A DNA stretch of 40,211 nt from a virus. Made by a program: the position numbers and the translations under genes. This document shows, in pieces, positions 15,487-33,970 of this stretch. The notes under the pieces are model-generated. The model saw only the letters and a program-made list of their open reading frames with translations, was not told the DNA's origin and did not search any database. Where the stretch lies: IMG/VR virus record IMGVR_UViG_3300025317_000001, positions 1 through 40,211 of that record; one strand, written 5' to 3'. Numbering within the stretch: the first letter of the stretch is position 1; every line of letters starts with the position of its first letter.

Positions 15487-15495
15487 GTTGATTTA

Positions 15496-15501
15496 ATTAT
15501 A
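15496..15501 (-). promoter_or_regulatory. Extended -10 promoter 9 nt before a GTG start
   Basis: TGTTATAAT on the minus strand, box at 15501-15496; GTG start of the fibre at 15486. Confidence 0.5.
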
Positions 15502-15530
15502 ACATTAGTTATCTATTAAAAATATAATAC

Positions 15531-15558
15531 TTGACAATATTATTGAGTGTAGTATAGT
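15531..15558 (+). promoter_or_regulatory. Consensus sigma70 promoter on the plus strand
   Basis: TTGACA (15531-15536), 16-nt spacer, TATAGT (15553-15558). It faces opposite to all surrounding late genes and drives a 26-codon frame beginning 7 nt after the -10 box. Confidence 0.7.
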
Positions 15559-15564
15559 GGGGAT

Positions 15565-15645
15565 ATGTGGATAGCAGATATTATTTTAATAATTATTTGT
15601 CTCTATCTTGCTAATGAACTTGGCAAGAAAGAGAATAGATTCTAA
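15565..15645 (+). CDS. Plus-strand membrane micropeptide (26 aa)
   Basis: ATG at 15565 with GGGGAT just upstream; TAA at 15643-15645. The product starts MWIADIILIIICLYLANELG and then ends in basic residues: one membrane span. It lies alone between two minus-strand structural genes, overlaps the stop of the 825-aa gene by 4 nt and has a near-perfect promoter. It could be an early-expressed exclusion, toxin-like or host-modulating peptide. The short length keeps the call tentative. Confidence 0.5.
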   Translation: MWIADIILIIICLYLANELGKKENRF

Positions 15646-18119
15646 TCTTCAGGGATAAATGGACTTTGATACATTTGTATCCCCCCCTTCTCATCCAAAA
15701 GAGTTTGTAGAGCTTTAACTTTATTCTTCTCGGTATAACCCATCTGTTTTTCTAAATCTAAGGGGTCAATTTTATATCCAAAATATCTCATAATTTCCTG
15801 GTCTGTTGTCCTTCTTCCGTATTCCCTTTGTTGTTCTAAAGTTCCCCCACTAATTTTCTCAAATTTTGATGGTGTTGGTGTTCCATTTTCTTCATAACCG
15901 GTTGGAATAGCATCTGCTATTATTGGCGGAGCAAATGTTTTTAATACATATTTTGCCATATCCATTGTTTGTTTATCGGGGTCATCTGTTTTCTTATAAA
16001 TCTGTTTACCGGAGAAATCTTTATTTAACCAAATTTCTCTAAGAATATTTACGAATGCTAGCTTACTAGCTACTGTTCCAGCTACACTTTCAGGAAGACC
16101 TTCTTTTGTTTTAGGTCTTTCAAAATAATTACCAGCCACTATGTCACCAAAAGGGAGAACATAAGTCAAGTCTAAATACCTTGCTCTTCCTAGTTTGTCT
16201 TCACCCGGCAATCTGACATATAAACCATCCTTAACCCAAGAAGGTTCATTTGCTCTTTCTTGTTGTAATTGTTCTATCCCGGTCTGTTTTTCTATTGAGT
16301 TTTTAATCTTTCCTAGATATGAAACCTTACCAGGTTTAGTTATCATTGTTTTAATAACTTGCGGTGTTGCTTTATATGTGAAGGTTATAAACGGTACACC
16401 AAAAGCTGATTCTCTTACACGCCTAATAAATGGGGTAACTTGGGCATAATTAAATGTAGCCATCTCTGCGGCTTTAACGGCATCCTCGGGAGATAATCCT
16501 TTTTCTCTTTGATAAATAAATTGAGCCAATTTTGCAAACTCTTCTTCTTTTTGGTATAGATTGGCTATCTTGTCTCCAATATTTTTTAAACCACCAATTG
16601 CTCCATTTTTCCCTCCCAAAATATCTTTTAATTCTTGGGCTGCAAATGTGTCAATAGCCAATCCAGCATTCTTGGCTTCTTTGTAAATATTTCCCTTCTT
16701 TATAAGTTCAGACGCAGCTTTTCCATATATATCTAATCTTGCTGGCGAAAGACCAGCAAAGTCATTTAAAATGAAATTACTTATTATATTTCTTATATGG
16801 GTTGCTGGGTTTAGGACAACCTTACTATACTTGAAAGTTGCCACTGCTTTTTTAATATATTTATCAAGACCTTCGGGGGGTTTTCTTGTGAGTTCTTGAA
16901 GATCGTCAAAGATTGGACCAGGAACAAATTTACCAGATAAAGCCCCAAGTGATTTTGTATCTGGAAGTTTTTTCATTCCATCAGCAATATCAGGAGTTAT
17001 TTCTTCGGCCAATTTGCCCCATTGACCATTAACTTCTTTGAAGAATTTAGCTTTCTCTATTGATTGTTTAAGTTGGATTAATGATTTGGCGGTAGGATAA
17101 CCAGCTTCAAGTATTTCCCCCATGGATTCTCTAATATCTTCAGGTATGTCTTTCCTTTTTTTAAATCTATCAAGTTCAATTCTTTGTGGTTTTTTATCGA
17201 AAATTGTTTTCAGTATACCTTCTTCGGGAATTTCTTTAGATTTATATAGACGAGCCATATATTTCCCCATGTTGGCAAAATATGTTTGTTCATCTAAAAG
17301 TCCCACATCCACCGCTTCTCTTCCAAGTCTATCAAGTTCAGCAAATGCTGGTTTTGCTTTTTCTAAAATATCTGGCGTCAAAGATTCAAGATTACCAGCT
17401 TTTCTGGCATTGCCAATTGCAATTTGGGCGGCTGAATCAAGTTTAGTTATTGGCCTTACAATATCCAATACGTTTTGTATTCCAATACCGATAGCTTTTT
17501 GGGATTTTTCAGCAATCTTTTGATATATTGGATCTTGGCCATATCTATAAACTAAAGCTCTGCCGAGTATATCTCCTGTTTGTTTAACGGAGTTACCAAT
17601 TAAGGGAAGTTTGGTTGCTGTTTTACCGGCAATTTTGGCTGCTGCTCCGGCTGTCCTTAATACAGCCTTACCGAGCCCAAGTATTGGAACATAGGTCATG
17701 GGGTCTACTGCAATATCAAGTGCTGTTCCACCAAGTATTCTAAGGGTTGCGTCATCACTTAGGGCATAGGCATCTTTTTTAGAAAAACTTTCTCTGGTCT
17801 GCATACCTTCTCTAAAAGATTTACCTTTTAAAATACCAACCACTCCATGTTGAGTTGCATTTAAAACATCAAATACATCTGTAATAAATCCTCCACTAAA
17901 AATCTTCTCAGGGTCTTCCCCATAAGATTCGGTTATTTTCTTAGCTTGCTTGGAAACCCCAATTTGAGCAGCTCGTTTTTCTAATCCTGATACTGTTTTT
18001 AAATCTTTAGAGGAAATATTACCCCCAAGTCCTTTTTGTTGTCTAAAAATTTGGATAGCACTGGGTTCTTGTGTCTGTTTTCCAAACTTTTTTCTGTATT
18101 CTTCAATTGGACTTGCCAT
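15642..18119 (-). CDS. Internal virion / large polyvalent-type protein
   Basis: 825 aa. The segment KYSKVVLNPATHIRNIISN (about residues 435-455) is a hallmark of phage large polyvalent proteins that are packaged and ejected with DNA. Before it lie amphipathic Ala/Gly helices (GKAVLRTAGAAAKIAG) able to insert in membranes, and after it a helical region (YQKEEEFAKLAQFIYQ). Size and position among tail genes fit a podovirus ejection protein. There is no transglycosylase or peptidase motif. In a long-tailed phage a protein this size would more often be the tape measure, but the long coiled-coil repeats of tape measures are missing. Confidence 0.6.
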   Translation of the reverse strand: MASPIEEYRKKFGKQTQEPSAIQIFRQQKGLGGNISSKDLKTVSGLEKRAAQIGVSKQAKKITESYGEDPEKIFSGGFITDVFDVLNATQHGVVGILKGKSFREGMQTRESFSKKDAYALSDDATLRILGGTALDIAVDPMTYVPILGLGKAVLRTAGAAAKIAGKTATKLPLIGNSVKQTGDILGRALVYRYGQDPIYQKIAEKSQKAIGIGIQNVLDIVRPITKLDSAAQIAIGNARKAGNLESLTPDILEKAKPAFAELDRLGREAVDVGLLDEQTYFANMGKYMARLYKSKEIPEEGILKTIFDKKPQRIELDRFKKRKDIPEDIRESMGEILEAGYPTAKSLIQLKQSIEKAKFFKEVNGQWGKLAEEITPDIADGMKKLPDTKSLGALSGKFVPGPIFDDLQELTRKPPEGLDKYIKKAVATFKYSKVVLNPATHIRNIISNFILNDFAGLSPARLDIYGKAASELIKKGNIYKEAKNAGLAIDTFAAQELKDILGGKNGAIGGLKNIGDKIANLYQKEEEFAKLAQFIYQREKGLSPEDAVKAAEMATFNYAQVTPFIRRVRESAFGVPFITFTYKATPQVIKTMITKPGKVSYLGKIKNSIEKQTGIEQLQQERANEPSWVKDGLYVRLPGEDKLGRARYLDLTYVLPFGDIVAGNYFERPKTKEGLPESVAGTVASKLAFVNILREIWLNKDFSGKQIYKKTDDPDKQTMDMAKYVLKTFAPPIIADAIPTGYEENGTPTPSKFEKISGGTLEQQREYGRRTTDQEIMRYFGYKIDPLDLEKQMGYTEKNKVKALQTLLDEKGGIQMYQSPFIPED

Positions 18120-23284: not shown

Positions 23285-24166
23285 TTATGTATGAGTTACA
23301 TAATCCGATGAAGGGTTAAAATAAATAGTATTTGGCTCTACTGTAACTGCAAATGCAACCCTTCGCATCACACTATCAGTTGTTACCGGCGCTGTTGCTG
23401 TTATGTCCCCGGCAGTTTCAGACACATATACGGGCGCACCCAAAGCAATTGAAGCAGGAAAAGCGGCAGAACGAATAGTACCCATAAGAAGCATTGAAGT
23501 TGCCACGCCATCTGTACTTGCATCAACACAAATACCAAGCACTACATCACCTGCCGTAGACGCGGCGCTTGCATCAGCGAGTAACCATTCTGCCGCCGTT
23601 ACATCTAAGTAACATAAATCACCAAATGCCAGTGTCGCCCCCGCTGTGCCAGGAACCGTAATACCTGAATATCTTTCATCCGCCGACATTGAGGCATCCA
23701 CCACAATACCGACTGTTGCGGGGTCTGCTCCTTCTCCTAAAGTAATATTTCCTGTAAGCGTGCCACCCGCCACAGTCAGAACATTTGTTCCTTCAACGGC
23801 TAACACTCCCGCCGAAGCCCTGCTAAGAGTAGTATCGGAGGCATGGCCTAATTCTATATTCCCAGTCGTGGTTACAGTAGCAACTGTAATACTAGGAGTT
23901 CCCGTTAGGGCAGTTGCAACAGTATTATCGCCGGTGTTCGTTCCTGATGTATTTCCTATTACTGTCTTTTCTGCGTCAGTTACATAATTATCGTCAGCAC
24001 CTAGGGCTGCTGCATAAAGCGTATCAAAATATGTTTTAAGGGTTGCCTTAATATTAGCCCAAGTTATTTTCTTAGTAGTAGTTGTTGTAATATCCACAAT
24101 AGGCACAACATCTGTATCTATTGCGGGGGTATAACTTGTTAAATTTGTTATTTTAGAATTTGCCAT
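23285..24166 (-). CDS. Tail fibre-type protein (293 aa)
   Basis: The N-terminal part (ITNLTSYTPAIDTDVVPIVD, then KITWANIKATLKTYFDTLY) is a fibre attachment and coil segment. DAEKTVIGNTSGTNTGD at ~60-80 is a widespread fibre-shaft motif. A beta-rich C-terminal domain (VGIVVDASMSADERYSGITV, then GDLCYLDVTAAEW) resembles peptide or sugar-binding heads on phage fibres. The start overlaps the upstream stop as TGATG. Confidence 0.65.
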   Translation of the reverse strand: MANSKITNLTSYTPAIDTDVVPIVDITTTTTKKITWANIKATLKTYFDTLYAAALGADDNYVTDAEKTVIGNTSGTNTGDNTVATALTGTPSITVATVTTTGNIELGHASDTTLSRASAGVLAVEGTNVLTVAGGTLTGNITLGEGADPATVGIVVDASMSADERYSGITVPGTAGATLAFGDLCYLDVTAAEWLLADASAASTAGDVVLGICVDASTDGVATSMLLMGTIRSAAFPASIALGAPVYVSETAGDITATAPVTTDSVMRRVAFAVTVEPNTIYFNPSSDYVTHT

Positions 24167-24384
24167 CAGTTTTTTGTTTGATATGAATAAGGCGTACTTG
24201 ATTCTGTGCTACTCTCAAGAAGAATTGAGTCTCCCGTTTCTAAAAGAATATAATCTCCAGTTTCCTGTAAAAGAATTGAATCACTGGTTGTAGATTTGGA
24301 GGGAAACGAGAAAGAAGTACTATTCTTTGTTTGATTGCTGAATGTTGTAGTATTTTTTACTTGTTGTGACCATGTTGTTGTCAT
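24166..24384 (-). CDS. Short repetitive structural protein (72 aa)
   Basis: Ser/Thr-rich with two internal repeats: TTxSxQ(T/V)KN at the N-terminus (WSQQVKN, FSNQTKN, repeated at the end as YSYQTKN) and ILLQETGD-YILLETGD-SILLES in the middle. Such ILLETGD repeats recur in small phage virion proteins. Probably a linker or decoration peptide of the tail. Confidence 0.5.
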   Translation of the reverse strand: MTTTWSQQVKNTTTFSNQTKNSTSFSFPSKSTTSDSILLQETGDYILLETGDSILLESSTESSTPYSYQTKN

Positions 24385-24386
24385 AC

Positions 24387-25082
24387 TTATACAAACTGTC
24401 TCCAGCTTCTCTTAGAGGCTGGCCTTACTGTTGTTTTATGTTCCACATCTCTCCTAGAATAGAATCGCACTAATCCTTGTTCCAACCTAGCTTTTTGAGC
24501 CGCAAGAAATTGTCTTTGCTGAGTATCTTGAACGAAATCAAGCGATGCCCCATAAGAGAGTATCCTGTGGTATGGTTTCGCAAATCCCGGTTCGGTGGTT
24601 GTTGCGGTTGTTGGAAATTCAGTTACATCCCTATTTACATATACAGCCAAACCAGACGCTAGGGTGGCATAAGCGGAAGATGGTTTCGGGTAGAGCATCA
24701 ATGAACGCCCAATTAAATCATAATGAACCGGCATACCGGCTGTTTCAAGATATTCTGGGAGGGCAATAGAAACATCTCCCAAATCAATTTGGATAAGTTT
24801 CTGCCAATTACCGGAAGAATCTTTTACTTCAACCCTTTCAACTCTTTGGGTTGTGGATGGTAGTGAATAATCTTGCTGACCATGCACCATGGTAGCTTTA
24901 GCGATTGGAAGTGTTGTGGCATTGCTATCATCGTATTGCCAAGAACCCTGACTTTCCCAAATAAGTCTTGAAACATTATTGTATTCAATATTTACATTTC
25001 TCGTAATGTCAGCGAGTGGATATGAGGCAGAAGTTGTTCCACATAAGAAATGAATATCTGCCGTAATATTATTATAATTCAT
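24387..25082 (-). CDS. Head-tail adaptor (gp11-like)
   Basis: 231 aa. The helical opening (ITADIHFLCGTTSASYPLAD, then VNIEYNNVSRLIWES), the central beta domain (DYSLPSTTQRVERVEVK, then GRSLMLYPKPSS) and the helical end (RILSYGASLDFVQDT, then ARLEQGLVRFYSRRD) match the order seen in podovirus adaptor/tail-tubular-A type proteins, which dock on the portal. It is the first structural gene after the glycan block and has its own promoter with a 6-nt -10/ATG distance. Confidence 0.65.
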   Translation of the reverse strand: MNYNNITADIHFLCGTTSASYPLADITRNVNIEYNNVSRLIWESQGSWQYDDSNATTLPIAKATMVHGQQDYSLPSTTQRVERVEVKDSSGNWQKLIQIDLGDVSIALPEYLETAGMPVHYDLIGRSLMLYPKPSSAYATLASGLAVYVNRDVTEFPTTATTTEPGFAKPYHRILSYGASLDFVQDTQQRQFLAAQKARLEQGLVRFYSRRDVEHKTTVRPASKRSWRQFV

Positions 25083-25103: not shown

Positions 25104-25409
25104 TTACTTAAAAAAATCTATATCAGAAATACCCTTATCGTCAATATACTTGTCCCCAAAAAATTTAGTTCCAGTTCTTAAAATATGATATTTAATTCCC
25201 CAATTTTTGAGTTGTTTTCCCGTTTGTTTATGATGGTCAAAACCAGTTTGTGAACCTCTTGCCGTATCTATAATTATCATGTTGCCCTCATCGTAAAGTT
25301 TATTCAATTTCTCTATCCTTTCCAGATATGGTTTAACGGAATAAACATCCCCACCATCATTTGGAATATTTTCACACAAAGTACCATCAAGGTCTACAAT
25401 ATATCTCAT
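25104..25409 (-). CDS. HAD-type phosphatase of the capsule-biosynthesis kind
   Basis: 101 aa, a minimal HAD core with no cap. The nucleophile/acid pair is D6-L-D8 in YIVDLDGTLCENI, motif II is IIDTARG, and the metal site is DKYIDDKG. TGFDHHKQTGKQLKNWGIKY is typical of small phosphatases in capsule gene clusters. It may dephosphorylate a sugar-phosphate such as a 9-phosphate of a nine-carbon sugar, which would fit the NeuB/NeuA-like genes in the same operon; substrate is inference. The start overlaps the preceding methyltransferase stop (ATGA). Confidence 0.7.
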   Translation of the reverse strand: MRYIVDLDGTLCENIPNDGGDVYSVKPYLERIEKLNKLYDEGNMIIIDTARGSQTGFDHHKQTGKQLKNWGIKYHILRTGTKFFGDKYIDDKGISDIDFFK

Positions 25410-25948
25410 ATCTTTTTTGCCACTACACGCACCAAAAATGGATCTTCATTCTTGTATTTAGAAAACCCAGTCCCCTCTGTTAGGGAAATGATCTGAAAGT
25501 TGTTATCTTTTAAATCTTTAACGAGTTGGGCAACATTGACAAAATTTCTTTCATGTTTCCTAAAAGTCTTTGGTTTATATTTATCATCGGTTGTTCTGGC
25601 TTCAATGAAAAGAAGGGAAGTTGCCCATTTGAGAATTTTTAATTGCAAATCCCTATTGATAGCGTGCCAAAAGAATCTTGTATATACATTGTCATTACAC
25701 TTGTGATTTTTAATATATTCCCCAACATCAATTTTATTTGTGAAAATATCGCCATAAGCGGAATCGATACCCCTTGCTGTAATTCCGCATTCATGAAAAT
25801 ATGATAAATCTCTCCCGTCACCAGATCCCAATTCTAGTATACCTTTATCCGCGAATACTGCCGCAATTTCAGCAAATGAAGAATGTTTTAATTTCTTGGA
25901 ATTACGATAGAATTTCTCCCAATATTTTTTATTTTTTATTTGGTTCAT
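25406..25948 (-). CDS. Class I SAM-dependent methyltransferase
   Basis: 180 aa. Motif I GILELGSGDGRDLSYF (about residues 36-51) binds SAM, the acidic end of strand 2 is ARGIDSAYGD, and a motif III-like strand lies at ILKWATSLLFIEA. It lacks any DNA-methylase NPPY or DPPY motif, so DNA is an unlikely target. In this operon a sugar or glycan substrate is more likely. It overlaps the LicD gene by 20 nt. Confidence 0.7.
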   Translation of the reverse strand: MNQIKNKKYWEKFYRNSKKLKHSSFAEIAAVFADKGILELGSGDGRDLSYFHECGITARGIDSAYGDIFTNKIDVGEYIKNHKCNDNVYTRFFWHAINRDLQLKILKWATSLLFIEARTTDDKYKPKTFRKHERNFVNVAQLVKDLKDNNFQIISLTEGTGFSKYKNEDPFLVRVVAKKI

Positions 25949-26603
25949 TTTTGAAAATAGTTACTTCATTTTTTCCAGTAATATTTAACATTTCGGCATA
26001 TTCAGGATGTGATGTGAGGTAGGTTGGGGAATGATCCCTGCCTAGTTTATCTCTCCAATTTCTATATGAGAATTCAAGATATTTTTCAATGGGTGAGGGC
26101 GTAAGATATTTCTTTCCATGAATTTTAATGGTGTCTAGTTTCTCGTAGAATTGTGCGGGAGTAGATATAAGTGTCATAGCACCCAATTTGGGCGTGCATA
26201 TATATTCAAACATCTGGTGAGTATTACAGAATTCTTTCTGAAAAAAGAATATGGAGAATGGGAACTTTCTTTTACATACGATGATACCAGTTTTATCATC
26301 TCCGTTGTATCCAATTTCACTTGGTTCCATCCTACCAAATACATTGAAGGCTATATCTTGTGGCATAAATCCTAAGTCATATAATGCCCAGCCAATAGCC
26401 TTACGAGTTTTTAAATCTATTTCATCTATAATAGCAAGGTCTAAATCATCATCATGTTCAAGGAAGTCTCCATCTCTAACCATTCCCAATAATCCCCCGT
26501 AGCATAAAATAGCCCTTACGCCATGTTGCTCAAATACTTTCACGACTAACTCTAAGTCTGAAATCCTATCTGGATATTTTGATTTCTTAGTAAAGAATGC
26601 CAT
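25929..26603 (-). CDS. licD: LicD-family nucleotidyltransferase-fold transferase
   Basis: 224 aa from the ATG at 26603 (another at 26621 overlaps NeuB further). The signature ILCYGGLLGMVRDGDFLEHD continues into DDLDLAI: the Gly-Gly-x-L-L-G-x-x-R strand and the D-D-D-x-D metal site of LicD/fukutin-type enzymes. Bacterial relatives move phosphocholine or sugar-phosphates onto glycans or teichoic acids. Here it would add a phospho-substituent to the phage-made glycan. Donor unknown; no choline kinase or cytidylyltransferase of LicC type is present. Confidence 0.75.
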   Translation of the reverse strand: MAFFTKKSKYPDRISDLELVVKVFEQHGVRAILCYGGLLGMVRDGDFLEHDDDLDLAIIDEIDLKTRKAIGWALYDLGFMPQDIAFNVFGRMEPSEIGYNGDDKTGIIVCKRKFPFSIFFFQKEFCNTHQMFEYICTPKLGAMTLISTPAQFYEKLDTIKIHGKKYLTPSPIEKYLEFSYRNWRDKLGRDHSPTYLTSHPEYAEMLNITGKNEVTIFKNEPNKK

Positions 26604-27315
26604 TTTGATTTTGTCTTGCAAAAATTGTTAAATCTTTCATATCAGTAGGGTTACCGGAACCCTTTTGGTCGTGTCCAGGTAAATCCCTTGAAAGCGTGAA
26701 GTGCTTTTCGATTATCTTAGCACCTCGTTTAATAGCCTCTCTTGGCCAATAAGTTCCAATTGTATGGTCTGAGAATCCCATATACTTCTCTCCTTCACCA
26801 AACTTGACTGGAAAATTTTCAGCTTTCATATAGGTTGGATATTCAGCTATACAAAATAAATAATCACAATTCTTTATTGCTGGAATACCACGCTCGTCTA
26901 ACTTACCAAGTGAGGCAATAATTGGTTTACCCGTTGCTTCCATAGCCTTAATGAGTTCTGTGTCATAGATACTTCGTGAGGCAACCTTATGGCGTTTGAC
27001 CCCTAATTCCTCAAGCCATTGAAGATGTTCTAAATCAAAAGCAGAAGCCATAAATTCAATGCCAACCTTATCACAATATTCTTTTAGTTCCCTAAATTCT
27101 TCCTTGGTATGTTCTGATAGGAGTAATTCAAAATAACGAGATTCCCATGGTTGTTTAATCTTGTTTGTATTGTATGCTTGGAATTTTGCGATATCAGCTC
27201 CACACCTTTTTGCCTCATCAATTAGGAGTTTAGCGTGTCGCATATAACCCATGTGGTTATGGCCAATTTCAAAACACATGAGGACTTTATTTTTTTCTTT
27301 TTCTTCTGGTGTCAT
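26587..27315 (-). CDS. neuB: NeuB-like sialate/nonulosonate synthase lacking the SAF domain
   Basis: 242 aa from the ATG at 27315; upstream ATGs at 27324 and 27354 are alternatives. NeuB enzymes condense PEP with an N-acyl hexosamine to make a nine-carbon acid. The TIM-barrel motifs are clear: FEIGHNHMGYMRHAK (15-29), GADIAKFQA (39-47), FMASAFDLEHL (88-98), SDHTIGTYWP (182-191, metal His184) and AKIIEKHFTLSRDLPGHD (199-216, metal His205). The protein stops about 30 residues after this, where NeuB normally continues ~70 residues into an SAF antifreeze-like domain that closes the active site of the partner subunit. Family fit is strong, activity is uncertain. Confidence 0.8.
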   Translation of the reverse strand: MTPEEKEKNKVLMCFEIGHNHMGYMRHAKLLIDEAKRCGADIAKFQAYNTNKIKQPWESRYFELLLSEHTKEEFRELKEYCDKVGIEFMASAFDLEHLQWLEELGVKRHKVASRSIYDTELIKAMEATGKPIIASLGKLDERGIPAIKNCDYLFCIAEYPTYMKAENFPVKFGEGEKYMGFSDHTIGTYWPREAIKRGAKIIEKHFTLSRDLPGHDQKGSGNPTDMKDLTIFARQNQNGILY

Positions 27316-27862
27316 TTTTATCATTATACATGAGAGCACTTTGGTAATCTGCAAGAGTGTGAATATCGGTTGATAGGTCTTGAATAAGGGCTTCTGGTTT
27401 CGGTTTATATGGGTTTTTATATTTCTTCAATCTTTCTTTGGTTAATGCCCAAACACTTCCATAGATATTTAAATCCTTATCACAAGTCATTACTTCTTGG
27501 TAATTATTCTCCATTAGGCTCTTGACAATTTCAATAGTAGCGGGTTTAATGGTTGGACTATTGGCCTGGACTGCGATTATACCATCACATTTTCTCATCT
27601 TTTCAAGGGCGTGTTTGTAAACTGGAATATTGGGGATATCTCCACAGAGTTTTGGACTTCTGAATATTATCTCTGCTTTATATCTTCTGGCGATTATTGC
27701 TATCTTGGGAGAATCAGTGGAAACATAAACTTTATCAAATATCTTTAAGCACTTTTTTAGATTTACCACGAACATTGGCACCCCGTGGAAGTCTAGGAGA
27801 TTTTTTCCCGGCAATCTTTTGCTGTCCCCCTTTACTAACATCAGCCCGTAAAATTTTCCCAT
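27287..27862 (-). CDS. neuA: NeuA-like CMP-nonulosonate synthetase
   Basis: 191 aa from the ATG at 27862 (the frame opens further upstream, but the family start is MGKFYGLMLVKGDSKRLPGK). Motif I KGDSKRLPGKN (11-21) binds CTP, VSTDSPKIA (48-56) and AVQANSPTI (98-106) follow, and TDIHTLADYQ (165-174) holds the metal Asp. It would activate a nine-carbon sugar as CMP derivative for a transferase. The start lies inside the last 128 nt of the DUF4910-like gene in another frame, an unusually long overlap. The 3' end overlaps the NeuB gene, so both are translated from one mRNA. Confidence 0.8.
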   Translation of the reverse strand: MGKFYGLMLVKGDSKRLPGKNLLDFHGVPMFVVNLKKCLKIFDKVYVSTDSPKIAIIARRYKAEIIFRSPKLCGDIPNIPVYKHALEKMRKCDGIIAVQANSPTIKPATIEIVKSLMENNYQEVMTCDKDLNIYGSVWALTKERLKKYKNPYKPKPEALIQDLSTDIHTLADYQSALMYNDKNDTRRKRKK

Positions 27863-29111
27863 CGGCTTCGATTTTTTTAATTTGGTCATATACAATATCA
27901 AATGGAAGTTGTAAATCCGCGCATAATTCAAGTAGGGATTTTTTGCCATCCATCATGTAAAAGAAATAATCATAGTTAAGATTTACTTGCTTGCTGACAG
28001 TCTGCATTCCATATTTACTCCGCATAAGTGGCCCCTTGAAGTTTTTAATTGGAATGAAATCTTTCTCATATAGTTCGACCACCTTTATGATTAAATCAGC
28101 AACCTCGGTAATTTTTTCATAATTGATTTTATCTGGCGTATCTGCCGAAGTATGATATTCCTTATAGGGAAATGTAGAGAATAGGAGTCCCGGAATTCCT
28201 ATTAGGGGATCATTGAATACGGTTTCATCTGAACCTATCGTTGAGCGAAATGGAGCCTTACGATAAGTTTTACCAGACATCTGTAGTGTTGATTGAACTA
28301 TATAATTTATCCTATCTCTCGGATTCCATGTCTTAAAGGATAAGACTGAATTGTCATTTCCACAAATATCAACTGCTACCATAAAATCAACTTTAGATAA
28401 ATCTTGCGTAAGGGCATAGGCGATGGAACCAATAGTCTCTGGACAAAATACTATTTTTATGGTATGCTCACATTCGATTTTATCCAAGACTTCCAGAATG
28501 CAAGTTACCCCAGAAAGATTATCATTTGCCTGATATGGGTGATCCAGATGGGCAAAGAGTAGTATTTCACGGTCAGTCTTTCCGGGCTTCTCTAAAACCC
28601 CCAGTTTCATTACCCCATTTTTGAACTCGCTATCAATAAAGACCTCGTAGTCGCCCTCTGGGAGTTCTTTCTTTTGATTCTCAGACATACAGAAGCCCCA
28701 TCTTTTTTCATAGAAAGAGGTTCGATATGGAATCGTATCTGGATCATTATCCCCAAAATCTGTTCCTGAATAAATATTTTTAATGATTTCTTCCTTAGAA
28801 AGAGTTCCTTTAAATGGTGTTGAGTAGATTAAGACAGAAAGGGGTTCTTTTTCATAATCCAATATCTTTTCTCCATTATATTTTATCCATGCTTCTTTGA
28901 TTATCCATTCCTCTGGAACCGTCCATGTATCAAATTCAGTCCCCGTTGGAAATTCTAATACCTTCATTTCCTTGGTTGCATATATTGGCGGTATCTCTCT
29001 TTTAAGCCAAAAAAGATTTTTCAAGTATTCCAACCTCTTGTCATATCCTTCCCCCAAAAGATAGGCATTTATCGGGTATAAATCTTCAATTATTTCTTTT
29101 GAAGTTTTCAT
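27735..29111 (-). CDS. DUF4910 / M28-like metallo-hydrolase with C-terminal winged helix
   Basis: 458 aa. The aminopeptidase-like fold keeps the zinc ligands: H188 and D190 in FAHLDHPYQ, D197 in QANDNLSG, E225 in CPETIGS, D248 in VAVDICG and H320 in EYHTSADTPDKI. Residues ~382-422 (YFFYMMDGKKSLLELCADL, then VYDQIKKIEADGKI) form a winged helix typical of this family. Relatives sit in bacterial polysaccharide or flagellin-glycan clusters, where the true substrate is unknown. The last ~42 residues (417-458) are encoded by DNA that also encodes the NeuA start in another frame, and their K/R-rich composition suggests a non-conserved tail. Confidence 0.75.
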   Translation of the reverse strand: MKTSKEIIEDLYPINAYLLGEGYDKRLEYLKNLFWLKREIPPIYATKEMKVLEFPTGTEFDTWTVPEEWIIKEAWIKYNGEKILDYEKEPLSVLIYSTPFKGTLSKEEIIKNIYSGTDFGDNDPDTIPYRTSFYEKRWGFCMSENQKKELPEGDYEVFIDSEFKNGVMKLGVLEKPGKTDREILLFAHLDHPYQANDNLSGVTCILEVLDKIECEHTIKIVFCPETIGSIAYALTQDLSKVDFMVAVDICGNDNSVLSFKTWNPRDRINYIVQSTLQMSGKTYRKAPFRSTIGSDETVFNDPLIGIPGLLFSTFPYKEYHTSADTPDKINYEKITEVADLIIKVVELYEKDFIPIKNFKGPLMRSKYGMQTVSKQVNLNYDYFFYMMDGKKSLLELCADLQLPFDIVYDQIKKIEADGKILRADVSKGGQQKIAGKKSPRLPRGANVRGKSKKVLKDI

Positions 29112-29686
29112 TATATTTTAGTTATTACTATTTGGCGACCCTCTATACCTAGTTCGGTTGGATGTATCTTATCTTTCAAAAAATCATCAACAGCAACCTT
29201 AACGCCCTTATGGGCTGGATAATCGTGGACAATTATCTTTCCACCGAGCGAAACCATTGGGTAAATATATTCCAAGCACTCCTTAGTTGATTCATAAATA
29301 TCAACATCGATATGAGCAAGAGCTATCTTCTTATCTTTGAGTATACCACCTGATTCTGGAAATACACCCTTAATGATATAAACATTCTTTTCATCTTTTA
29401 ATAAACTTTTTACAAATGATTCACCCGCATCACAATGACCAACTGTGTAATATTTAGGGTCATAATCAAAATTTAATTTATTTGGTAAACCTTCAAAGGT
29501 ATCAAAAAGATATACTTCTTTTTCTTTATTTTCTTCCCTTATGATGGCTGCGGTGGCACCCTGATAAACACCAACCTCAACAATCACACCCTCGATATTG
29601 GGAATTTCTTGGAGAGTTTTCCTAAATAGTTTTATTTCCCCTGGGGTCTGATAAATTTCTACATCTTTATATCTCATGTTTTTCAA
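29111..29686 (-). CDS. TylF/MycF-type sugar O-methyltransferase
   Basis: 191 aa. VIVEVGVYQGATAAIIR is the SAM-binding motif I, YLFDTFEGLPNKL is the family's diagnostic second motif, and HIDVDIYESTKECLE carries the metal-binding Asp pair with IIVHDYPAHKGVKVAVDD closing the active site. Known members methylate hydroxyls of deoxysugars on macrolides and glycans with Mg2+. It likely caps or modifies the phage-encoded glycan. The start overlaps the SGNH gene by 20 nt and the stop abuts the next ATG. Confidence 0.8.
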   Translation of the reverse strand: MKNMRYKDVEIYQTPGEIKLFRKTLQEIPNIEGVIVEVGVYQGATAAIIREENKEKEVYLFDTFEGLPNKLNFDYDPKYYTVGHCDAGESFVKSLLKDEKNVYIIKGVFPESGGILKDKKIALAHIDVDIYESTKECLEYIYPMVSLGGKIIVHDYPAHKGVKVAVDDFLKDKIHPTELGIEGRQIVITKI

Positions 29687-30263
29687 ATTCTTTTAATAAT
29701 AATGGAATAACTTTTTGATTGAGATGAATACTGTCTTCTTCCCTTATTACATAGTAACTCATATCAGTTTTTAGATTGTGCATAAGTTCTTCTAATATTG
29801 ATATGTATAATATTCCCACCCTATCTGCCCTCTTTTTACATTCATTTGTAAATTCCAAAGTTACTTGATTTCTTTCTTCCTCTGTTCCTTCACAATTTTT
29901 ATCCATTGAACTACTAGCTGGTGGTAGATATAAAATAATGTTATTTGTCATTCGTGCCATATCTATAAATTTGAAATAGTTATCAACTGTTTCTTTTATG
30001 TTCAATTTCTGACTTAGATACATCCGGCAATCTATCTCCCCAAATGATAACATGGCGGTCGTATTGGGGGGAGTAATGGCATAAAAATCATCTATAATTT
30101 TATTCTTGATTAAATTATGAGCTGTTCGTGGCCCGATTCTACAAACCGTAAACTGATGACCATTTATTGTCAGGGGGCTATCTATATATTTTGCTCCCTC
30201 CCCAAGTAAGTCATTAGTTCCCCTAAATACCCCAACATGGGAATCACCAAATACATATATCAT
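29667..30263 (-). CDS. SGNH/GDSL-type hydrolase or acyltransferase-like protein
   Basis: 198 aa. Block I is YVFGDSHVGVF with Ser8, block II RIGPRTAHN (Gly44), block III MLSFGEIDCR (75-78, GEID in place of GxND) and block V EEDSIHLN with D177 and H180. The triad Ser8-Asp177-His180 is complete. SGNH proteins in glycan clusters usually remove or add acetyl groups. The GEID variant of block III is common in polysaccharide-cluster members. No signal peptide, so it acts in the cytoplasm. Confidence 0.7.
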   Translation of the reverse strand: MIYVFGDSHVGVFRGTNDLLGEGAKYIDSPLTINGHQFTVCRIGPRTAHNLIKNKIIDDFYAITPPNTTAMLSFGEIDCRMYLSQKLNIKETVDNYFKFIDMARMTNNIILYLPPASSSMDKNCEGTEEERNQVTLEFTNECKKRADRVGILYISILEELMHNLKTDMSYYVIREEDSIHLNQKVIPLLLKEFEKHEI

Positions 30264-30739
30264 TTCTTTAATATTCTCAATATGCCAGTTTCATTAAATA
30301 AATTATCTTGTTCATATACCTGAGTATATCCAAATTGTTCAAATATATTTTTATAATTTCTACCCCACAGGGTCTGTTTATATCCATTATTGGCATCATA
30401 CTTACCCTCAAATAAGAAGAGATATTTTTTCGCCATTCTCGCTATCTTTTCAAAGACCCATTCATTCTCTCTGGGGATAAGAAATAGAGTTGACATGGTA
30501 TAGATAATATCGTATTGTTTTTCTGGCACATCTTCTATAGCAGTTCCATTTTTCTTATCTATTCCATCAATATTGAGGAATCCATTTTCCTTTAATTTGT
30601 TAATATTTCGATTATCACCACTGCCTATTTCCAGAATAGTATCATTTGGTAATACCCAATCTTTAAATACATCTACTAATAATCTCGAACGTTCATCTGG
30701 GGTATCTATAACTCTATATATTTTTTTTAATAAGTTCAT
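30260..30739 (-). CDS. Class I SAM-dependent methyltransferase (small)
   Basis: 159 aa. Motif I TILEIGSGDNRNINKLK binds SAM, NIDGIDKKNGTAIED is strand 2 with its acidic end, and YDIIYTMSTLFLIPRE is the motif IV region. The fold lacks extra domains, and no nucleic-acid-methylase motif is present, so a sugar or small-molecule substrate is likely. It overlaps both neighbours (26 and 4 nt). Confidence 0.65.
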   Translation of the reverse strand: MNLLKKIYRVIDTPDERSRLLVDVFKDWVLPNDTILEIGSGDNRNINKLKENGFLNIDGIDKKNGTAIEDVPEKQYDIIYTMSTLFLIPRENEWVFEKIARMAKKYLFLFEGKYDANNGYKQTLWGRNYKNIFEQFGYTQVYEQDNLFNETGILRILKK

Positions 30740-31565
30740 GGGTATTTAATCCTAATCCCCCCTCTTCAATTACAATCTGCTTCCGTTCTTCTTTTAATTC
30801 ATCGGGGTTGGCTAGTTGTTGACCAATAGTTTTTCTCAAATTCCCGAGTGATGTTCTTTTTGAAGCCCTTGATATTACCCTGCGATAAGTCTCATATCTT
30901 GGGTCTCCACCAAATGATTTCGGTTCCCATTCCTCCATGATGACCACTGGTATATCCATAGCCTGAGCTATAAGTTCGAAAGTAGATTCAGAAATCCCAA
31001 CAACCAAATCAGCAGTAGAAAGAACATCGGCACAAATGTCAAGGTGATTAGCATCATCTCTTCGGGATGCAACGGGGTTGTCAAACTCTTCTGGATTATG
31101 GCTTTCAATAATTTTAGTAATGACATTGCAGTTTTTTAATTTCCTTAATTCGTTTCTAACTTTAATATTTTCTTCTACGGGTCTATCCCAATGTTCTGGG
31201 CAAAATACTATATTTATTCCCCCATGTTCTTTTCTGGGTTTGAGATATTTGAACACAGTAGCTCCGACAACTTTAATTTTCTTCGGGTCTTGCCCAGCTT
31301 CAATGAGAGCTTCCTTATCAGACTCACCCCATACCATGAGTATATCAGCTTTTATTTTTTCATTAAATGGGGAAAAGTATTTAGAAGTTCCCCTTCTTCC
31401 ATGTTGATAGACTAAATTTTTTTTACCCCTCGATTTGGCAAGATTTATGATCCCTCTTTCTATTGGATTGACATCATTCCAAAGGATCACCGTTTTTGCT
31501 TTATCAAAATCTTCAGTAGTTCCTAAATCTTTTAATACTGAATTATGATCCAGGGTATAAATCAT
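30714..31565 (-). CDS. GT-B-fold glycan enzyme (glycosyltransferase/epimerase-like)
   Basis: 283 aa. NLVYQHGRRGTSKYFSPFN, then KADILMVWGESDKEALIEAG and KIKVVGATVFKYL, matches the half-barrel seen in UDP-sugar 2-epimerases and CDP-glycerol-type transferases. The C-terminal STADLVVGISESTFELIAQA, then DIPVVIMEEW, is the usual donor-binding motif (a Ser/Glu pair after VVGISEST). It may be a transferase, or an epimerase that supplies the ManNAc-like substrate for the NeuB-like enzyme; the sequence does not decide between them. The start overlaps the upstream transferase stop (TAATG). Confidence 0.6.
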   Translation of the reverse strand: MIYTLDHNSVLKDLGTTEDFDKAKTVILWNDVNPIERGIINLAKSRGKKNLVYQHGRRGTSKYFSPFNEKIKADILMVWGESDKEALIEAGQDPKKIKVVGATVFKYLKPRKEHGGINIVFCPEHWDRPVEENIKVRNELRKLKNCNVITKIIESHNPEEFDNPVASRRDDANHLDICADVLSTADLVVGISESTFELIAQAMDIPVVIMEEWEPKSFGGDPRYETYRRVISRASKRTSLGNLRKTIGQQLANPDELKEERKQIVIEEGGLGLNTHELIKKNI

Positions 31566-32680
31566 TAAGATTGATTTAGAACTTTTAATCCCTTTATACC
31601 TTCACCCTGTAAAGCTAGTTCCCAGGGAAGACCAATGGCATCAAGGCTTCTATTTTTGTGAACCCAATCTTGCTGTTTTTTTCCGAGTTTCTCTCTGAAT
31701 TCCTTATCCACAATGAGTTTCTCAAGTTTCTTATACCAATCTTTGTAAGTATTCTTGGTTAAATATCCTACTTCTTTTGAATACGGGAGAACATCGGACG
31801 CCAATACAGCCGTCCCCACCGAAGCATATTCATAATATTTAACACAGGATTTTCCAGCATTAAATGTGGTATCTTCAAGTGGGGCAATGCCAATATCAAA
31901 ATCACACCTCGAAAGAACTGATGGATGTAATTCTGGCGGCATGAATGGAACGTGCATTGTCTTTAAATCCTTGAGTTGTTCTGCGAATTTAATGGCCGAA
32001 CGATAATATTCATTTTTCTCTGGTGCAAAATTTCCAGCTAAAGTTCTTTGATAGAAATACATAGCAGCCTCAAGGGGTTCGCCCGTAAGTCCATAAATAG
32101 CAAACAGGAAATCATATTTCTTTGCTAGATCATTTACTACTTGTCCAATGAGATGTAAGTCTCCCCAATGAGAAGCGGCCCCCATATATCCAATTACAAG
32201 TTCTTGATGAATATGCGGTCTTTCAATATAACTAGCTAAGTCTACACCATTCGGACAAAGATGGATTTTCTTCTTAAAATATTTTTTGAATTTCTTTGCT
32301 AAAACCTCTGATGGCGTAATAACAATATCAGCTTCCTTTATTTGACTCTCGTATTGATCTTTTAGGGCATTTGACACAAGTACACTGGGATTATTTTTTG
32401 CCACTTGCCAAAAATCATCATCCATGTCGTAAATAACCCTTACCCCTTGGGCTTTAAATTCCTTCATCCACTTGACTGGGTTATATTGAGTTGGATAAGT
32501 TCTGCCGAATACTACAACATCTGGCCATTCGAGCAATTCTTTTGGAATCTCTGAACCTATTGACATCTGCCTAACAGCGTGTCCTCTTAATTTAAGAGCT
32601 TGGGTGGGGAGATTTATTCTATGAAACCAAATTCCATGAATATATGCATCCGGGCGATCCGCTACAAATAAAACTTTCAC
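31565..32680 (-). CDS. GT4-like glycosyltransferase
   Basis: 371 aa from a GTG at 32680. The N-terminal GT-B half holds WPDVVVFGRTYPTQYNP and VRVIYDMDDDFWQVA (81-95). The inter-domain link is LCPNGVDLASY (141-151). The donor-binding half has VIGYMGAASHWGDL (162-175) and FDIGIAPLEDTTFNAGKSC, then KYYEYASVGTAVLASD, the E-x7-E-like region. It transfers a sugar from a nucleotide donor in the cytoplasm. It is the first large gene of the glycan operon. Donor and acceptor are unknown. Confidence 0.8.
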   Translation of the reverse strand: MKVLFVADRPDAYIHGIWFHRINLPTQALKLRGHAVRQMSIGSEIPKELLEWPDVVVFGRTYPTQYNPVKWMKEFKAQGVRVIYDMDDDFWQVAKNNPSVLVSNALKDQYESQIKEADIVITPSEVLAKKFKKYFKKKIHLCPNGVDLASYIERPHIHQELVIGYMGAASHWGDLHLIGQVVNDLAKKYDFLFAIYGLTGEPLEAAMYFYQRTLAGNFAPEKNEYYRSAIKFAEQLKDLKTMHVPFMPPELHPSVLSRCDFDIGIAPLEDTTFNAGKSCVKYYEYASVGTAVLASDVLPYSKEVGYLTKNTYKDWYKKLEKLIVDKEFREKLGKKQQDWVHKNRSLDAIGLPWELALQGEGIKGLKVLNQS

Positions 32681-32682
32681 GG

Positions 32683-32901
32683 CTATATTTTCCTTAGAAA
32701 AGTTAATAATTTATCTTTCGACTTTATTTCATTTTGGAGTTGAATAAGTTGCTTTCTTTGAACACCAATAAATTCAGGAGGGCCACCACCTAAAATGGTT
32801 TCAGTTACGAATTCTTCCATTAATTTATCTACTTCTTTTAGGTATAGATACCTATTTTTTAATCGCCAGATAGCGAGTAATCTGTTGAATTTATTTAACA
32901 T
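32683..32901 (-). CDS. Small helical protein between capsid and glycosyltransferase (72 aa)
   Basis: Starts at the ATG at 32901 (a TTG at 32940 would place the start in the stem-loop). A helical, charged protein (MLNKFNRLLAIWRLKNRYLY, then KEVDKLMEEFVTETIL and QRKQLIQLQNEIKSKDKLL). It could bind the capsid or the transferases, but nothing proves either. The stop is 3 nt before the GTG of the glycosyltransferase. Confidence 0.5.
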   Translation of the reverse strand: MLNKFNRLLAIWRLKNRYLYLKEVDKLMEEFVTETILGGGPPEFIGVQRKQLIQLQNEIKSKDKLLTFLRKI

Positions 32902-32940
32902 ATATTTTATTATTAACTTATAAGATAGTTGCTTCCTCAA

Positions 32941-33004: not shown

Positions 33005-33970
33005 TTAGCCAGTGAAGGCTGTCGGCATAGAAAGGTTAATACCTCTCTCTTTGTTCTTCGTTGTAACAGTTGAACCGTATACAGTCCAGAAGATGAAGTT
33101 TGAACCTAACATATCGTCTTTAGGCTTGATCTCCAAACCTGGAGATTTCTGCATAGCGACGCTGATGGTACCTTTTCTTCCGAAGTAAGAAGCACGTCCA
33201 ACGGTTGTACCGGATGCGCCAGCACCAGATAGACCGCCAATAATGCCGTTACCCGCTGCTGGGGCGATGGCTGAAAGGTTTCCTGATGGAAGGTTGTTGG
33301 AAATATAGACTTGGAAGCCCATGAAATCTCCAGCGTAACCATTCCTTAAGGTTGAATCTGCTACATTGAAACCGACCGTTGCGGCCTTTTTTTCAACTTG
33401 AGATGCAATCTTCGGGGAAACAATGCAACACCAATCTCCTAATTCTTCAACATTGTGATCGCGGAGGAACTTTCGAGCTCCCGCGAAGACATTGATGATG
33501 TTTGCTGAACCGGCTGAAACTGGAGCACCATTGGTGGAACCAGTACCGATATCAAGGTCGTCTGCTGGCATAAAGCCATCAGCTCCTGTGATATTTTTCA
33601 GAACATCAGTGTCAATCCTATTTTTCAGACGGAAAGCCGCTTCTGTGGCAAGTTCCCTTGCAGCGTCAATATTAGTCTGAATTTTGTGAACATCGTCCAC
33701 ATAGAAAGGAGCAACAATGTAAGAAGAAATAACGAGTGTGTCATATGCCCAGTCTTGAGCTACGGCAGAAATAGTAGTCCCAGCGGTATAAGTTGTGGCA
33801 GAAAGATTTCCGAAACGTGGAATGTGGATGGTATCAGAATTACTGTAATCACCCAATTTCATGTCCGCAATTTCTAATGCAACCAAAGACTTATACAAAG
33901 GAACCTGCACCATTTTTGACCATAATTCAGGAACTATAGCAGATACATCGTTTGTAATTACTTGTGTCAT
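33005..33970 (-). CDS. Major capsid protein (HK97 fold)
   Basis: 321 aa. The order of elements fits HK97-fold coats: an N-terminal arm (MTQVITNDVSAIVPELWSKM), an E-loop-like strand pair (IHIPRFGNLSATTYTAGTTI), the spine-helix region (HKIQTNIDAARELATEAAF), the P-domain strands (KIASQVEKKAATVG) and a C-terminal A-domain (GTISVAMQKSPGLEIKPKDD). It follows the scaffold-like gene and precedes the stem-loop. The size is usual for short-tailed phages without a separate delta domain. Confidence 0.75.
   Translation of the reverse strand: MTQVITNDVSAIVPELWSKMVQVPLYKSLVALEIADMKLGDYSNSDTIHIPRFGNLSATTYTAGTTISAVAQDWAYDTLVISSYIVAPFYVDDVHKIQTNIDAARELATEAAFRLKNRIDTDVLKNITGADGFMPADDLDIGTGSTNGAPVSAGSANIINVFAGARKFLRDHNVEELGDWCCIVSPKIASQVEKKAATVGFNVADSTLRNGYAGDFMGFQVYISNNLPSGNLSAIAPAAGNGIIGGLSGAGASGTTVGRASYFGRKGTISVAMQKSPGLEIKPKDDMLGSNFIFWTVYGSTVTTKNKERGINLSMPTAFTG

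What the first reader, a model, noticed from the sequence alone, without database searches (positions are those of the whole stretch)
25104..32680. Phage-borne 11-gene glycan (sialate-like) assembly operon between capsid and adaptor genes
Eleven genes with overlapping ends (1-128 nt) encode two GT-B-type proteins, three methyltransferases, an SGNH hydrolase, a DUF4910/M28-like protein, NeuA-like and NeuB-like enzymes, a LicD-type transferase and a HAD phosphatase. Motifs were read directly. Known families link NeuB/NeuA to nonulosonic acids and LicD/TylF/SGNH to glycan decoration. Having synthesis (NeuB), activation (NeuA), transfer and tailoring together inside a late structural operon is, to my knowledge, uncommon for a 40-kb phage. 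Timing with capsid genes suggests glycosylation of virion proteins. Host-surface remodelling is the alternative.
Basis: partly seen in the sequence, partly recalled or inferred. Interest (0 to 1): 0.92.

Follow-up and report, generated by a model that had tools for sequence, protein, structure and literature searches.

The report
Phage sugar-coat operon between head genes
A complete 40-kb virus of bacteria carries an 11-gene sugar-building block (including the last two steps of a sialic-acid-type pathway) between its capsid and neck genes, and nearly all of its environmental relatives carry a version of the same block with swapped 'decoration' genes, so these viruses probably make their own sugar coat, although no sugar has been measured yet.

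Summary
Eleven intact, overlapping minus-strand genes fill 25104-32680, between the major capsid gene and an SU10-type adaptor gene of a closed genome. Profiles place NeuB and the NeuA-like cytidylyltransferase in the expected families. The block is not stray cargo. Among 61 clusters of related capsid genes in IMG/VR, those with enough downstream sequence carry GTB1 in 51/51, GTB2 in 42/42, DUF4910 in 28/30, NeuA in 23/24 and NeuB in 22/23 clusters. The core is under purifying selection. Tailoring genes vary: two NeuB forms were exchanged at least five times; eight loci carry PEP-mutase phosphonate genes; others carry sulfo-, acetyl-, methyl- or radical-SAM enzymes. Two distant members encode most or all of the route from UDP-GlcNAc to CMP-nonulosonate. 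Isolated-phage records have no match to NeuA, DUF4910 or GTB2. Best reading: a clade-defining, antigen-locus-like module that builds a nonulosonate-type glycan in the cytoplasm and puts it on the virion. Host-surface modification remains possible. 'Sialate' is too specific: the window encodes only the last two steps, its NeuB lacks the SAF domain, and acceptor, sugar and host are unknown. New variant of a known kind (phage-encoded virion glycosylation).

The parts
33005..33970 (-). major capsid protein (upstream flank of the block)
   Evidence: PHROG 267 major head protein 8e-35; used to collect relatives
32683..32940 (-). g85: small basic protein of unknown function between capsid gene and GTB1, conserved in most relatives
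   Evidence: tblastn hits at 32-69% outside the near-identical contigs; no Pfam
31565..32680 (-). GTB1: GT4-type (GT-B) glycosyltransferase, the most constant gene of the block
   Evidence: PHROG 7162 5e-36; AlphaFold2 pLDDT 91, best PDB match PglA 8dqd 6.5e-13; 51/51 clusters
30714..31565 (-). GTB2: GT-B-fold protein of the NeuC/WecB/TagF structural class, substrate unknown
   Evidence: pLDDT 92; PDB 5xvs 1e-8; catalytic Glu of 2-epimerases replaced in alignment; 42/42 clusters
30260..30739 (-). MT2: putative SAM methyltransferase (variable part)
   Evidence: Methyltransf_23 0.0012, below cut-off
29667..30263 (-). SGNH-like hydrolase/esterase (motifs GDSH and DSIH only)
   Evidence: sequence read directly; no profile match; no relative found outside near-identical contigs
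29111..29686 (-). TylF-type O-methyltransferase (variable part)
   Evidence: TylF 2.4e-24
27735..29111 (-). DUF4910/DUF2172 M28-fold metallohydrolase-like protein, core gene
   Evidence: DUF4910 1e-38; 3k9t 5e-71; 28/30 clusters; 75/75 loci with it also hold this capsid gene
27287..27862 (-). NeuA-like cytidylyltransferase, core gene (longest ORF starts at 27949)
   Evidence: CTP_transf_3 3e-15; PseF 1.6e-17, below equivalog cut-off; CMP-NeuAc synthetase 6ifd 9e-17
26587..27324 (-). NeuB-like synthase, short form without SAF domain (longest ORF starts at 27354)
   Evidence: NeuB 9.4e-44; active-site columns invariant in 15 aligned proteins; PDB 1vli, 8h2c, 1xuu
25929..26621 (-). LicD-type nucleotidyl/phosphodiester transferase
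   Evidence: LicD 4.1e-6, above cut-off
25406..25948 (-). MT1: putative methyltransferase
   Evidence: PHROG 29440 1.5e-16; Methyltransf_23 below cut-off
25104..25409 (-). small HAD-type phosphatase-like protein
   Evidence: PHROG 1238 3e-21; EcbF-BcbF 5e-4, below cut-off; motif DLDGT
24387..25082 (-). head-neck adaptor (downstream flank of the block)
   Evidence: SU10_adaptor 1.1e-7, above Pfam cut-off
24166..24384 (-). g72: 72-aa Ser/Thr-rich (42%) repeat protein, possible glycan acceptor (inference only)
   Evidence: composition

Best explanation
The block is a clade-defining glycan-synthesis module of an uncultivated SU10-like, probably short-tailed phage group, and is probably transcribed with the head genes. 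In the cytoplasm NeuB condenses PEP with a hexosamine-type sugar (taken from the host in this member) to a nonulosonate; the NeuA-like enzyme activates it with CTP; GTB1 (GT4) and GTB2 (GT-B) build and attach a short glycan; LicD, TylF, two methyltransferases, SGNH and HAD proteins tailor it; DUF4910 probably hydrolyses an amide or ester on a sugar or acceptor. Soluble enzymes act on virion proteins (capsid, head or neck) before lysis and give the particle a variable sugar coat. Variable tailoring genes around a constant core resemble a bacterial surface-antigen locus. Shown: gene families, synteny, conservation, gene exchange, purifying selection. Inferred: biochemical order, sugar identity, acceptor and function.
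For: Between MCP and adaptor, GTB1 is present in 51/51, GTB2 42/42, DUF4910 28/30, NeuA 23/24 and NeuB 22/23 capsid clusters with enough sequence; the MCP-adaptor distance is 5.6-13.3 kb in 17 clusters. The contigs counted were found by capsid gene, so the counts do not depend on the sugar genes. All 75 loci with DUF4910 also have this capsid gene. dN/dS is 0.10-0.23, like MCP and portal. The 11 proteins have no segment of transmembrane-like hydropathy (maximum 1.39), and the block has no flippase, polymerase or lipid-carrier transferase. No integrase was seen in the PHROG/Pfam scans, so late host remodelling would have little use. NeuB forms changed at least five times on the MCP tree. L086 encodes PseB-like, PseC/LegC-like, NeuD-like, NeuC-like and fused NeuA-NeuB proteins, and L089 most of these, among head genes, so the nonulosonate theme holds for the group. 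Precedent for virion O-glycosylation by phage enzymes: Freeman et al. 2023, as reported in PMC11652166 and PMC12363180.
Against: No glycan, virion or host has been observed. GTB1's best structural match, PglA, works on lipid-linked glycans, which also fits host-surface glycan. The acceptor is unknown: the Ser/Thr-rich proteins near the adaptor are not conserved across the group, and no glycosylation site could be predicted. This window lacks precursor-forming genes, and NeuB lacks the SAF domain. Matches are below NCBIfam equivalog cut-offs, so the exact sugar is open.
Confidence: 0.6

Rival explanations
1. The block remodels the host surface: soluble enzymes alter lipid-linked or LPS/capsule precursors during infection, blocking adsorption of competing phages or of progeny to debris.
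For: GTB1 folds most like PglA and other enzymes that use lipid acceptors; LicD, TylF and NulO genes are common in bacterial surface loci (established knowledge); phages are known to modify capsular nonulosonates (A. baumannii phage O-acetyltransferases, PMC6586298).
Against: Locked between capsid and adaptor genes in nearly all relatives; no membrane or export protein in the window's block; no lysogeny genes seen; surface conversion is usually linked to lysogeny.
Confidence: 0.25
2. The sugars decorate phage DNA rather than protein.
For: GTB1's fold matches include T4 alpha-glucosyltransferase; GTs in phages often act on DNA (established knowledge).
Against: No nucleotide hydroxymethylase or thymidylate-synthase homologue was found among the scanned window proteins; CMP-nonulosonate and LicD chemistry is not known in DNA hypermodification; position is with late head genes.
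Confidence: 0.05
3. The module is metabolic or scavenged cargo acting on host metabolism (for instance draining or supplying PEP, CTP or sugar pools) without making a glycan for virion or surface.
For: The window has only partial pathway genes; enzyme names overlap with auxiliary metabolic genes.
Against: Two glycosyltransferase-fold genes are the most constant part (51/51, 42/42); tailoring enzymes (methyl, sulfo, acetyl, phosphonate) make sense only on a glycan.
Confidence: 0.1

Closest known systems
Mycobacteriophage virion O-glycosylation (Che8, Corndog, Myrna; Freeman et al. 2023, as cited in PMC11652166 and PMC12363180)
   Same: Phage-encoded glycosyltransferases predicted (here) or shown (there) to act on capsid and tail proteins; may shield virions.
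   Different: There the cited reports describe glycosyltransferases; here a whole block with NulO synthesis, CTP activation, LicD and variable tailoring, fixed between capsid and adaptor genes. Glycan is proven there, not here.
Bacterial nonulosonate (sialic, legionaminic, pseudaminic acid) pathways: NeuB/LegI/PseI and NeuA/LegF/PseF
   Same: NeuB and NeuA folds, active-site residues and gene adjacency; L086 also has PseB-, PseC/LegC-, NeuC- and NeuD-like genes.
   Different: Short SAF-less NeuB in the window; no precursor genes in the window; below equivalog cut-offs; phage head operon.
Giant-virus and chlorovirus autonomous glycosylation (for example Megavirinae rare-sugar pathways, PMC10117803)
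   Same: A virus brings sugar synthesis plus transferases, thought to coat its own particle; pathways differ by clade.
   Different: Eukaryotic hosts and very large genomes; here about 8 kb of a 40-kb tailed phage.
Phage ctQWt234 (MW202801, Manatee Spring, 40 kb)
   Same: A glycan block (two GTs, methyltransferase, NodB-like, PhyH-like, Fe-S enzyme) directly after the capsid gene.
   Different: Different gene set without NeuB/NeuA/DUF4910; seen here only as a database annotation.
Phosphonate glycan synthesis (PepM-Ppd-dehydrogenase-cytidylyltransferase; Prochlorococcus/SAR11, PMC8931226)
   Same: Relatives L008, L038, L045 and five more carry PepM; most also have Ppd and a cytidylyltransferase-like gene in the block.
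   Different: There, proposed for cell-surface glycoproteins of bacteria; here, in phage head operons of relatives, not in the window itself.

Membership tests
NeuB family (PEP-condensing nonulosonate synthase) | TIM-barrel NeuB domain above curated cut-off | tested here: met
   Pfam NeuB 150 bits against cut-off 22; PDB profile hits 1vli, 8h2c, 1xuu
NeuB family (PEP-condensing nonulosonate synthase) | Conserved catalytic and metal residues (two His 21 residues apart, Glu two before the second His, three Lys) | tested here: met
   H185, E204, H206, K45, K111, K131 invariant in 15 aligned proteins; residue roles from general knowledge of NeuB structures
NeuB family (PEP-condensing nonulosonate synthase) | C-terminal SAF (antifreeze-like) domain of classical NeuB/PseI | tested here: not met
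   Window protein ends after the barrel; long forms in L023, L024, L028, L031, L039 have about 115 more residues
N-acetylneuraminate (sialic acid) synthase, equivalog | NCBIfam TIGR03569 score above 399.65 bits | tested here: not met
   147.1 bits
CMP-nonulosonate synthetase (NeuA/PseF) | CTP_transf_3 domain above cut-off with SxRxxxKN-type motif | tested here: met
   57 bits against 22.6; K11, S14, R16, K20, N21 invariant; best PDB match CMP-NeuAc synthetase
CMP-nonulosonate synthetase (NeuA/PseF) | Equivalog score for PseF | tested here: not met
   63.9 bits against 205.7
UDP-GlcNAc 2-epimerase / NeuC (considered for GTB2) | Catalytic Glu residues of the 2-epimerase | tested here: not met
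   Fold matches, but the alignment to 4neq puts Q54 and F67 opposite the two Glu; sequence E only 0.07, so the alignment itself is weak
LicD | Pfam LicD above cut-off | tested here: met
   27.5 bits against 22.6
GT4 glycosyltransferase (GTB1) | GT-B fold with conserved Lys/Glu in the C-terminal domain | tested here: met
   Model pLDDT 91, PglA/PimA/BshA matches, K277, K281, E284 invariant; Pfam GT4 models just below cut-off
Virion glycosylation system | Glycan on a virion protein that depends on phage genes | not testable with these tools
   Needs virions and mass spectrometry
Seroconverting (Gtr-type) host-surface module | Membrane flippase/anchor proteins or prophage association | tested here: not met
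   No hydrophobic segment in the 11 proteins; no integrase in scanned proteins

The most novel reading that the evidence does not exclude
A whole family of small tailed phages carries, as a defining part of its head operon, a virion glycan locus that works like a bacterial serotype locus: a fixed core (GTB1, GTB2, DUF4910, NeuA, NeuB) with frequently exchanged tailoring enzymes, including phosphonate synthesis and, in distant members, nonulosonate synthesis from UDP-GlcNAc. Virions would carry nonulosonate and phosphonate sugars, chemistry not reported on phage particles in the papers searched.
Probability: 0.45. Interest if true: 0.88.

Novelty: new variant of a known kind. Interest (0 to 1): 0.74.

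Why it matters
Phage particles are usually treated as bare protein. If this clade coats its heads with phage-made, clade-variable sugars, then virion glycans could be under diversifying pressure in the environment (for attachment, grazing, particle stability or binding by other organisms), far from any animal immune system. It would make the question 'why do phages glycosylate virions?' testable outside mycobacteriophages, add phage-made nonulosonates and phosphonates to environmental carbon and phosphorus budgets, and supply small SAF-less NeuB, LicD and DUF4910 enzymes for biochemical study. A large share of a 40-kb genome (about 7.6 kb) is spent on it, so the benefit must be substantial.

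Tried and rejected
Stray host fragment: rejected, because the synteny holds with capsid proteins down to about 39-45% identity and the core is under purifying selection. GTB2 as NeuC, which would complete the sialate pathway: fold agrees but catalytic Glu positions do not. L088 as an empty site (capsid and adaptor 74 bp apart): rejected as proof of absence, because its relatives L115-L120 have a GTB1-like gene directly after the adaptor and L116 has SDR, GT, cytidylyltransferase-like and LicD-like ORFs upstream of TerL; the genes moved rather than being absent. Ser/Thr-rich g72, g293 and g238 as the general acceptors: not conserved in most relatives. Host from the genome collection: one MAG contig (L053, 'bacterium CG_2015-01t_44_12'), but only phage genes were recognised on it and none of 290 other sampled genomes of that phylum has the capsid gene, so no host is claimed. 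Literature searches for phage NeuB/NulO/capsid combinations and for viral PepM gave no description of this system; only open-licence PMC papers are covered. A first dN/dS script timed out and was redone. Two genome searches were malformed and redone.
Full report
What is there. The window is a closed viral genome: its ends share a 127-bp direct repeat and contig L012 reads through the junction. Its late genes run on the minus strand: TerL, SU10-like portal, scaffold-like gene, major capsid protein (MCP), then the block at 25104-32680, then an SU10-type adaptor. Eleven intact ORFs overlap by 1-128 nt. Profiles firmly support NeuB, the NeuA-like CTP transferase, LicD, DUF4910/M28 and TylF and, through PHROG 7162 and a GT4 fold, GTB1. 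GTB2 has no sequence family but a high-confidence GT-B model. HAD, SGNH and the two small methyltransferases rest on motifs or sub-threshold matches.

Active sites. In 15 aligned NeuB proteins the residues that in classical NeuB hold PEP, sugar and metal (by general knowledge) are invariant: K45, K111, K131, H185, E204 and H206, with the two histidines 21 apart as in the meningococcal enzyme. The window's NeuB ends after the barrel. Nine of 26 typed relatives have a long form; where aligned it carries about 115 extra C-terminal residues, read here as the SAF domain, except that the L086 protein is long because it is fused to NeuA. NeuA keeps the K-x2-S-x-R-x3-K-N motif and is nearest to CMP-NeuAc synthetases among solved structures. 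DUF4910 aligns along its length with 3k9t, a putative peptidase; likely metal-ligand positions (H188, D190, E225, D248, H320) are invariant or nearly so, though the assignment is mine.

The block belongs to the phage. Capsid-gene searches of IMG/VR gave 61 capsid clusters at 95% identity. Where enough downstream sequence exists, GTB1 follows in 51/51, GTB2 in 42/42, DUF4910 in 28/30, NeuA in 23/24 and NeuB in 22/23. The exceptions are L085 and L086, with capsid identity about 39%. MCP and adaptor lie 5.6-13.3 kb apart in 17 clusters. Every one of 75 loci (some are overlapping copies of one contig) with this DUF4910 type also holds this capsid gene. dN/dS medians of core genes are 0.10-0.23, against 0.11 for MCP and 0.16 for portal (few pairs for some genes, and synonymous sites partly saturated).

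A more distant sister group (L088, L115-L120) has MCP and adaptor about 64-74 bp apart, but in L115-L120 a GTB1-like gene follows the adaptor, and L116 has SDR, GT, cytidylyltransferase-like and LicD-like ORFs upstream of TerL (the last three read by eye from the translations). Glycan genes therefore seem old in this family and have moved among head genes.

Variable parts. On an MCP tree of 26 members the short and long NeuB forms need at least five changes even when only well-supported branches count. Tailoring genes differ between members: GT2 in 15 loci (one of them, L091, is an unrelated phage fetched for comparison), a further methyltransferase in 11, SDR dehydratase/epimerase in 10 (including L090, another comparison phage), B12-radical SAM in 7, sulfotransferase and GNAT in one each. 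Eight loci carry a PEP-mutase relative; in L008, L038 and L045 it has the EDKKYPKQNS stretch typical of PEP mutase (motif from general knowledge) and stands with split phosphonopyruvate-decarboxylase genes and a glycerol-3-phosphate-cytidylyltransferase-like gene, in L038 and L045 also with a PsrA-like dehydrogenase. That order suggests a CMP-activated phosphonate for LicD to transfer; this last step is inference. L086 encodes PseB-like, PseC/LegC-like, NeuD-like and NeuC-like enzymes and a fused NeuA-NeuB, and L089 shows most of these, so nonulosonate synthesis from UDP-GlcNAc is within this family's repertoire even though the window has only the last two steps.

Is it known? In 50,697 isolated or deposited phage records, NeuA, DUF4910 and GTB2 have no tblastn match at the thresholds used and NeuB has three weak ones. 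GTB1 has distant relatives, among them a GT beside head genes of Streptomyces phage Zuko and a GT in a different post-capsid glycan block of phage ctQWt234. Cultured phages with distantly related capsids (HTVC115P, CRP-9) lack the block, though CRP-9 has a methyltransferase gene directly after its coat gene. Mycobacteriophage virion glycosylation is the functional precedent. Paper searches found no account of this system.

Mechanism and its limits. I take virion glycosylation as most likely (0.6): co-location with head genes, soluble enzymes, no lysogeny genes, and a constant transferase pair with variable decoration. Host-surface change (0.25) is not excluded; GTB1's nearest structures include enzymes that use lipid acceptors. 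The sugar, acceptor, host and order of steps are not shown. 'Sialate-like' should read 'nonulosonate-type, exact sugar unknown'.

Noticed in passing
L008:11303-14435, L038:9600-12538, L045:13673-16333: Phosphonate cassettes (PEP mutase, split phosphonopyruvate decarboxylase, cytidylyltransferase-like gene, in two of them a PsrA-like dehydrogenase) inside phage head operons; PEP-mutase relatives also in L054, L061, L065, L069, L085.
   Followed up: partly
L086:3974-7339 and 14475-16440; L089:2143-5803: Near-complete nonulosonate pathway, mostly upstream of the portal gene, with NeuA and NeuB fused into one 419-aa protein in L086.
   Followed up: partly
window 24166-24384: 72-aa protein with 42% Ser+Thr and internal repeats right after the adaptor gene; two further Ser/Thr-rich proteins follow.
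   Followed up: partly
window 11955-13871: 638-aa protein, 33% Ser+Thr, repetitive, no family found; possible fibre and possible glycan acceptor.
   Followed up: no
window 32683-32940: Small basic protein conserved between capsid gene and GTB1 in most relatives, no known family.
   Followed up: no
MW202801 (L091:12145-17176): Another 40-kb environmental phage with an unrelated glycan block directly after its capsid gene, suggesting the arrangement arose more than once.
   Followed up: partly
MW514246 (L131:9064-9597): Roseobacter phage CRP-9 has a methyltransferase-domain gene directly after its coat protein gene.
   Followed up: no
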